A DNA stretch of 11,492 bases, taken from Rudaea sp. (lineage in GTDB: Bacteria; Pseudomonadota; Gammaproteobacteria; Xanthomonadales; Rhodanobacteraceae). Position 1 is the first letter of the stretch. Every line of letters starts with the position of its first letter. The stretch is taken from assembly GCA_025934455.1 (NCBI GenBank), contig JAICYA010000026.1, positions 1 through 11,492 on the forward strand, read 5' to 3'. Below are positions 2,817-3,161 of this stretch, piece by piece. The notes under the pieces were generated by a model that saw only the letters and a program-made list of their open reading frames with translations, was not told the origin of the DNA and made no database searches. The translations under genes and the position numbers were made by a program.

Positions 2817-3161
2817 ATGGCGCGAGAGAAGTTCGTACAACCTTACATAGAACACGGCCACAAATCAGTCGCCGTGAAAAAGGTGACGGTGTCGATACCG
2901 CTTCACGTACTCAGACTTCTCTCCGATGAACGCACACGCCGGCAAGTGAACAATCTCAGGCACGCGACGAACAGCGATCTGCTGTGCGAAGCGTTCCTGC
3001 ACGCTTTTACTGGGCAGCAACTACCAACTGACGAGGAGCTAAGACGCGATATGGCTATGAAGAAAGCTGCAAAAAAGAAACCCGCTAAGAAGGCCGCCAA
3101 GAAGACTGTGAAGGCCAAGGCCGCCAAGAAGACCGCACGCAAGACCGCGAAGAAGAAGTAA
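2817..3161 (+). CDS. metJ: Methionine repressor MetJ with a lysine/alanine-rich histone H1-like tail
   Basis: Residues 1-79 of this 114-residue protein are clearly MetJ, the ribbon-helix-helix repressor that binds met boxes with S-adenosylmethionine as corepressor. The DNA-contacting strand is 'KKVTVSIPLHVL' (21-32), and 'DERTRRQVNNLRHATNS' and 'LLCEAFLHAFTGQQLP' (55-70) are near-identical to E. coli MetJ. The N-terminal 'PYIEHGHKS' also matches. The E. coli C-terminal helix region (ending 'NPETWEY') is missing. Instead, residues 81-114 form a tail of 17 Lys, 10 Ala, 3 Thr, one Arg and few others, like AlgP/histone H1-like bacterial proteins. The ATG at 2817 is preceded by AGGA (2810-2813, short spacing) and a consensus promoter. 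The tail may add nonspecific DNA affinity (inference). The frame is unbroken between domains, so this is not an obvious frameshift; the GAGGAG at 3033-3038 before ATG 3051 leaves open internal initiation of the tail alone. Confidence 0.93.
   Translation: MAREKFVQPYIEHGHKSVAVKKVTVSIPLHVLRLLSDERTRRQVNNLRHATNSDLLCEAFLHAFTGQQLPTDEELRRDMAMKKAAKKKPAKKAAKKTVKAKAAKKTARKTAKKK

What the first reader, a model, noticed from the sequence alone, without database searches (positions are those of the whole stretch)
2817..3161. MetJ repressor carrying a histone H1-like Lys/Ala tail
Seen: residues 1-79 match MetJ closely, including the ribbon strand KKVTVSIP and the helix NNLRHATNS. The usual C-terminal helix is replaced by 34 residues with 17 Lys and 10 Ala. 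Known: MetJ binds met boxes as tandem dimers with S-adenosylmethionine, and E. coli MetJ (105 residues) has no such tail; H1-like tails such as that of AlgP bind DNA without sequence preference. Inference: the tail could raise DNA affinity, spread or bridge repressor arrays, or couple methionine control to nucleoid structure. It might also compensate for weak or fewer met boxes.
Basis: partly seen in the sequence, partly recalled or inferred. Interest (0 to 1): 0.75.

Follow-up and report, generated by a model that had tools for sequence, protein, structure and literature searches.

The report
Methionine repressor with histone-like tail
This bacterial version of the methionine repressor MetJ ends in a lysine- and alanine-rich tail like that of histone H1, a tail that its relatives share and that probably helps the repressor hold on to DNA.

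Summary
Window 2817-3161 encodes a 114-residue MetJ (Pfam and NCBIfam, above cut-off) whose last 34 residues hold 17 Lys and 10 Ala. It is no assembly or frame accident: of 80 related loci fetched, 73 hold a complete gene and all 73 carry such a tail, 33-307 residues long. Named carriers include Dyella, Luteibacter, Rhodanobacter, Dokdonella and Tahibacter. 227 of 233 genomes of that family have a MetJ match. 20 MetJ proteins from the same order but outside the family have no tail and no E. coli-like C-terminus. The tail changes mostly synonymously. The operators are still there: strong tandem met boxes in 10 of 10 tailed genomes and 0 of 10 MetJ-less relatives, at metX, metJ, a hom-like and a thrA-like gene. 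In 8 of 9 metX upstream regions the box touches a -35-like hexamer. Most likely the tail is a disordered, non-specific DNA clamp on an otherwise classical SAM-dependent repressor. That step is inferred from HupB, not shown. The papers searched describe no such MetJ.

The parts
2817..3161 (+). metJ, 114 aa, ATG to TAA
2817..3056 (+). MetJ core (ribbon-helix-helix / SAM-binding by family), residues 1-80
   Evidence: PF01340 5-83, NF003622 4-86, PDB 1cma 5-81; 69-96% identical to 38 aligned relatives
3057..3158 (+). histone H1-like Lys/Ala tail, residues 81-114 (17 K, 10 A, no D or E)
   Evidence: conserved in relatives
2632..2647 (+). tandem met boxes AGACGTAT-AGACGGCC, candidate MetJ operator, 185 bases before the metJ ATG
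   Evidence: only match with up to 3 mismatches in the window, shuffle mean 0.01; similar place in relatives
2755..2783 (+). conserved metJ promoter-like element: TTGACA (2755-2760), 17-base spacer, TAATTT (2778-2783)
   Evidence: exact TTGACA in 67 of 67 tailed loci that have a box of 11/16 or better in the zone. By consensus only
671..1756 (+). gcvT, conserved upstream neighbour
   Evidence: PF01571; synteny
1820..2218 (+). gcvH, next recognised gene upstream of metJ, same strand
   Evidence: PF01597; gcvH lies upstream on the same strand in 71 of 75 tailed loci with 1,400 bases or more upstream, ending within 760 bases in 58

Best explanation
This is a SAM-responsive methionine repressor MetJ of the lineage of Dyella, Rhodanobacter and Rudaea. 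The core works as in E. coli: a ribbon-helix-helix dimer reads tandem met boxes when SAM is bound and blocks promoters of metX and other methionine genes, and probably regulates metJ itself. Each subunit carries a disordered, strongly basic tail like that of histone H1. The tail most likely lies loosely on neighbouring DNA without reading its sequence. This lengthens residence on operators of two or three boxes and speeds the search for them, while specificity stays with the core. Shown here by sequence: identity, tail, its distribution and conservation, candidate operators and their genes. Inferred: disorder, DNA contact by the tail, SAM response, and the gain in affinity.
For: Core identity. 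Tail in 73 of 73 complete genes among the 80 loci of the genome scan; the other 7 are cut by contig ends. Mean net charge +0.41 per residue (78 tails); 26 acidic residues in 7,645 positions counted from residue 78, of which 22 are at position 78 and 4 after residue 80 (78 complete tails). Window against L002: 9 synonymous and 0 non-synonymous differences over 37 codons from residue 78, against L003 7 and 0; pN/pS 0-0.34 over eight relatives, of which L001 (2 and 1) and L005 (1 and 1) have few changes; no significance test was made. Tandem boxes with up to 2 mismatches in 10 of 10 tailed genomes (22 sites) and 0 of 10 MetJ-less order relatives; 15 of the 22 sites lie at metX, metJ, a hom-like or a thrA-like gene. 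In 66 of 77 tailed metJ genes the best two-box match in 260 bases scores 11/16 or more and lies 140-200 bases upstream; shuffled 1.4%. Precedent: HupB with its K/A tail binds linear DNA at Kd 42 nM, without it at over 1,000 nM (PMC2932737, passages). MetJ protein is reported by proteomics in Rhodanobacter thiooxydans FW510-R12 (PMC12146267, passages); its tail was not checked in that strain.
Against: No binding data exist for this protein. The tail could serve another polyanion. The AlphaFold monomer model was poor (mean pLDDT 53.6, low-confidence helix drawn through the tail) and its fold search found nothing significant, so neither fold nor disorder is shown by it. The metJ box starts 97-129 bases upstream of the conserved -35-like hexamer, which simple promoter blocking does not explain. 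Eleven of 77 tailed metJ genes, among them all five Luteibacter loci looked at, have no box of that score there. Seven of 22 strong sites are not at methionine genes, and the reversed control pattern gives 7 sites in the tailed and 8 in the MetJ-less genomes.
Confidence: 0.62

Rival explanations
1. The tail makes MetJ an architectural protein: SAM-bound MetJ spreads from, or bridges between, operators, coupling methionine state to local chromosome folding and allowing action at a distance at its own gene.
For: The metJ box starts 97-129 bases upstream of the conserved -35-like hexamer in 67 tailed loci. The longest tail found has about 300 residues, and that protein scores above the cut-off of a histone H1-like family (L006).
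Against: At metX the box touches a -35-like hexamer and needs no long-range action. The window's tail has only 34 residues. Three of six tail-less 'ARPE' relatives also have strong boxes far upstream of metJ (-195, -378 and -514), so a distant operator is not tied to the tail. An unrecognised second promoter near the box is not excluded. I lowered this from 0.15.
Confidence: 0.12
2. The tail binds another polyanion or partner (RNA, polyphosphate granules, RNA polymerase) and serves localisation or stability of MetJ rather than operator binding.
For: AlgP, with a KPAA-repeat tail, associates with polyphosphate granules, and truncating the tail perturbs them (PMC9239181, passages). 45 of 78 tails share an embedded motif within the last 48 residues, shuffled mean 1.1, which pure charge does not require.
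Against: The carrier is a DNA-binding repressor with candidate operators. The window's own tail lacks the motif. TopA, a DNA enzyme of the same order, carries the same kind of tail.
Confidence: 0.14
3. The tail is low-complexity drift: slippage-prone repeats tolerated at a labile C-terminus, without function.
For: Length varies 33-307 residues, and MetJ C-termini vary: 27 of 127 rows of the tree set are short, without tail. pN/pS in the tail is not lower than in the core.
Against: Present in 73 of 73 complete genes; 4 acidic residues after residue 80 in 78 tails; synonymous change outruns amino-acid change; a C-terminal motif is kept in 45 of 78.
Confidence: 0.09

Closest known systems
E. coli MetJ (PDB 1cma; PF01340; NF003622)
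   Same: Core sequence, operator consensus AGACGTCT in tandem, targets in methionine synthesis
   Different: Enteric MetJ proteins have about 26-32 residues after residue 77, in E. coli with a helix (recalled); this lineage has a K/A tail of 33-307 residues after residue 80
Mycobacterial HupB (MDP1): HU with PAKK/KAAK tail
   Same: A bacterial DNA-binding protein with an H1-like Lys/Ala tail that raises DNA affinity (PMC2932737, PMC5676037, passages)
   Different: HupB is a sequence-independent nucleoid protein; MetJ is by family a sequence-specific, SAM-responsive repressor
Topoisomerase I with K/A tail (same order; Streptomyces TopA)
   Same: Same kind of tail on a DNA enzyme, in tailed-MetJ genomes and in a MetJ-less relative. 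The Streptomyces paper was seen only as a title in a reference list; it is not held
   Different: Enzyme, not regulator
AlgP / PhaF of Pseudomonas
   Same: KPAA-repeat H1-like C-terminal domain (PMC9239181, passages)
   Different: Linked to granule organisation; not described there as a sequence-specific repressor
SamR of Xanthomonadales
   Same: Predicted regulator of the same pathway in the order (PMC4239095, passages)
   Different: Distant homolog of SahR (ArsR family); the same survey lists no MetJ in its four Xanthomonadales genomes

Membership tests
MetJ | Curated family model above cut-off | tested here: met
   PF01340 134.4 bits (cut-off 25); NF003622 137.8 bits (cut-off 110)
MetJ | Conserved DNA-reading strand and helices | tested here: met
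   Residues 5-81 align without gap to 1cma; K22, T24, E58, F64 invariant and R41 nearly so in 39 aligned proteins; their DNA or SAM roles are recalled. The fold itself was not confirmed by modelling
MetJ | Tandem met-box operators at methionine genes | tested here: met
   By sequence only:
MetJ | SAM-dependent repression | not testable with these tools
   needs binding or reporter assays
MetJ | E. coli-like C-terminus after residue 80 (common, not defining) | tested here: not met
   Absent here and shortened in 27 tail-less MetJ rows
Histone H1-like (HupB/AlgP/NF038053) tail | Lys/Ala-rich, nearly acid-free, low-complexity C-terminal region | tested here: met
   17 K and 10 A in 34 residues, no D or E
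Histone H1-like (HupB/AlgP/NF038053) tail | NCBIfam H1-like model above cut-off | tested here: inconclusive
   No match for the window or L032; L006 94.5 bits against a cut-off of 80
Histone H1-like (HupB/AlgP/NF038053) tail | Tail binds DNA without sequence preference | not testable with these tools
   inferred from HupB and AlgP papers

The most novel reading that the evidence does not exclude
In this family the methionine repressor has become a metabolite-gated chromatin-like protein. SAM sets where MetJ docks, and the H1-like tails then spread or bridge along flanking DNA, so one small-molecule signal controls both operator occupancy and local DNA architecture, perhaps including long-range control of metJ from a box about 110 bases upstream of its promoter.
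Probability: 0.12. Interest if true: 0.85.

Novelty: new variant of a known kind. Interest (0 to 1): 0.56.

Why it matters
MetJ is a textbook repressor; the regulon survey I could read places it in enteric, Vibrio, Aeromonas and Alteromonas-type orders and lists none in its four Xanthomonadales genomes (PMC4239095, passages). Here nearly a whole family has MetJ with met boxes and adds an H1-like tail of very variable length. That is a natural experiment on what a disordered basic tail does to a well-understood sequence-specific repressor: core and operators stay close to constant while tail length changes about ninefold between species. It also suggests that H1-like tails in bacteria are not confined to nucleoid proteins and topoisomerases.

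Tried and rejected
Assembly error or recent frame fusion: rejected. But 7 of the 80 loci are cut at a contig end in or just before the tail. Of six family members fetched because their frames looked short or unusual, five are cut the same way and one (L231) has a complete tail; contig lengths show that four of those five are genomes already counted among the 7 (L228 = L038, L229 = L007, L232 = L060, L233 = L014). The repeat seems to break assemblies, so the longest tails need long-read confirmation.

Tail compensates for weak or few operators: not supported, with the contrary hint from six 'ARPE' tail-less genomes told above.

Tail tied to the distant metJ operator: weakened, because three of six tail-less 'ARPE' relatives also have far boxes. 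In one search most other comparators with a box of 11/16 or more have it nearer to the best consensus promoter, but those promoters are weak guesses.

Tail copied from an H1-like gene of the same genome: a search with the Dyella tail and with NF038053 found other K/A-rich proteins, TopA among them, but composition alone can drive such scores, so no donor can be named.

Structure: AlphaFold with 39 sequences gave 53.6 mean pLDDT; the fold search on it is uninformative. MetJ is an intertwined dimer (recalled) and was modelled as a monomer. An Rfam scan of the window found nothing.

Single origin of the tail: 77 columns cannot settle it; the free tree needs 2 changes, and a single clade is not rejected (p-AU 0.724). 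Rows dropped before the tree: duplicates of a core, loci cut by contig ends, short cores, and operator loci L139-L172; L059 was relabelled K/A by eye.

Full report
What is there. The ORF at 2817-3161 (+) encodes 114 residues. Residues 1-80 are MetJ by Pfam, NCBIfam and solved structures. Residues 81-114 contain 17 Lys, 10 Ala and no Asp or Glu. The gene lies between gcvT-gcvH upstream and a GH44-type glycoside hydrolase, a TonB-like protein, a GPP34 protein, a serine beta-lactamase-fold protein, LemA and an M48 peptidase downstream. Much of this recurs: gcvH is upstream on the same strand in 71 of 75 tailed loci with 1,400 bases or more upstream, and of 55 with 3,700 bases or more downstream 53 match the TonB-like protein and 47 the beta-lactamase-fold protein in the same orientation. 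The window's organism is unknown; its nearest relatives are unnamed metagenome assemblies, and the nearest named one on the tree is a Rudaea assembly.

Distribution. A protein search scored 7,991 candidates and kept 2,047 at E <= 0.001; the 120 best, the only ones listed, all carry the MetJ domain. 73 of the 80 hold a complete gene, and all 73 have a K/A tail of 33-307 residues after residue 80, median 97; the window has 34. Named carriers include Dyella, Luteibacter, Rhodanobacter, Dokdonella, Tahibacter, Oleiagrimonas, Mizugakiibacter, Frateuria and Rudaea; these 80 were the best matches to a tailed query, so they say nothing on tail-less kin. For that I used whole genomes. 227 of 233 genomes of the Dyella jiangningensis family have a MetJ match, 226 over the cut-off (the match list was cut, so I have not read a tail in all of them). 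In the order it is 145 of 398 sampled, in the class sample 5 of 369, two of them of this family. Of the 145, 20 lie outside the family (their handles are absent), and I read all 20: none has a tail or an E. coli-like C-terminus. In a second order 162 of 197 genomes have MetJ; in the de-duplicated set 21 of its rows have an E. coli-like C-terminus of 26-32 residues and 7, chosen because the table showed them short, have 4-20. So MetJ C-termini are labile, and the tail looks like an addition in one family.

Evolution. On a tree of 127 cores (79 tailed, 27 short, 21 E. coli-like) the tailed rows form, with six tail-less rows ending in 'ARPE' or the like, one side of a branch with 100% SH-aLRT; tailed rows as one clade are not rejected (p-AU 0.724). 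Only 77 columns are available, and 72 of 124 inner branches are open.

Constraint on the tail. Against eight close relatives pN/pS over 36-37 codons from residue 78 is 0-0.34, against 0.06-0.23 in the core; so the tail is constrained, not more than the core. Within the closest relatives it is conserved residue by residue; farther off composition and some motifs stay: 45 of 78 tails have an A[KR]xx[RKH]A[TSV][RK]-like element near the end, shuffled mean 1.1 (I wrote the motif after looking at the tails, and the window lacks it). After residue 80 the 78 tails hold 4 acidic residues.

Operators. In the window the only two-box match with up to 3 mismatches lies at 2632-2647, mean 0.01 in shuffles. 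In 66 of 77 tailed metJ genes the best two-box match in the 260 bases upstream scores at least 11/16 and lies 140-200 bases before the start, against 1.4% of 3,850 mononucleotide shuffles; the zone was set. The five Luteibacter loci and a few Dyella loci lack a convincing box there. Genome-wide, tandem boxes with up to 2 mismatches occur in 10 of 10 tailed genomes (22 sites) and in 0 of 10 MetJ-less relatives; the reversed control pattern gives 7 and 8 sites. By NCBIfam and position, 10 sites are at metX in 9 genomes (in G001 one site appears twice at the same offset as its duplicated metJ, so the second was not annotated apart), 2 at metJ, 2 overlapping ones at a thrA-like gene, 1 between a hom-like gene and a divergent antiporter gene, and 7 elsewhere. 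MetX scores exceed the NF006449 cut-off in six loci and fall below it in three; the hom-like and thrA-like genes score below their families' cut-offs. In 8 of 9 metX upstream regions the box touches or lies one base before TTGAC(A/G/T); in the ninth it is 9 bases away. That is the classical way to block a promoter, though the promoters are known by consensus only.

An odd point. At metJ itself the box starts 97-129 bases upstream of a strongly conserved TTGACA-17-TA..TT element (67 loci selected for having a box). The DNA between is poorly conserved, and in the window the upstream gene runs in the same direction. Either a second promoter escapes my consensus, or MetJ acts here at a distance. 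The distance is not a mark of the tail: three of six 'ARPE' tail-less relatives have strong boxes at -195, -378 and -514, and the other three none of 11/16 within 600 bases.

Lineage habit. In an NF038053 search of 20 order genomes, 16 have a match, and frames of 833-924 residues recur in 13; the four such proteins that I tested match DNA topoisomerase I best, as partial sequences below the cut-off, and end in K/A-rich stretches. One of the four is from a MetJ-less genome. The MetJ tail is thus probably one use of a device common in this group.

Mechanism. HupB shows what such a tail can do: with it Kd for linear DNA is 42 nM, without it over 1,000 nM (PMC2932737, passages). MetJ binds SAM on the side opposite the DNA and is activated electrostatically (PMC1282579, passages), so extra positive charge in cis should raise affinity on any DNA, and the core should keep specificity. 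This is inference. The statement that no description is in print rests, of listings and of passages in the papers named; only open-licence PMC papers are held.

Noticed in passing
window 2632-2783 and the same region of tailed relatives: The metJ box starts 97-129 bases upstream of the conserved promoter-like element; 39 of 67 distances are 112-116 and 18 are 121-127, about one helical turn apart, but the loci are related, so this was not tested.
   Followed up: partly
L157:2194, L164:2146: A strong tandem met box in Dyella and Luteibacter sits directly after the stop codon of a conserved small protein gene next to a terminator-like hairpin, not at a promoter.
   Followed up: partly
L009, L013, L026, L068: In four Luteibacter loci another protein near metJ, with a signal-peptide-like start, also ends in a K/A-rich stretch.
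   Followed up: no
L221, L223, L224, L226: DNA topoisomerase I with an H1-like K/A tail in four genomes of the order, one of them without MetJ.
   Followed up: partly
genomes G017 and G027: Tail-less MetJ genomes with 16 strong tandem met boxes each, many of the form AAACGTTTAGACGTCT, some clustered; possibly a repeat or an expanded regulon.
   Followed up: no
window 6492-7109 (-): A GPP34 (Golgi phosphoprotein 3-like) protein, matched downstream of metJ in several relatives too.
   Followed up: no
window 3470-5134 (+): GH44-type glycoside hydrolase ending in PDDDEIFKDGFQ, which looks like a sorting-type C-terminal motif; not checked.
   Followed up: no
L007, L014, L035, L038, L060, L074, L075, L230: Contigs break inside or just before the MetJ tail, so short-read assemblies may under-report it.
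   Followed up: yes
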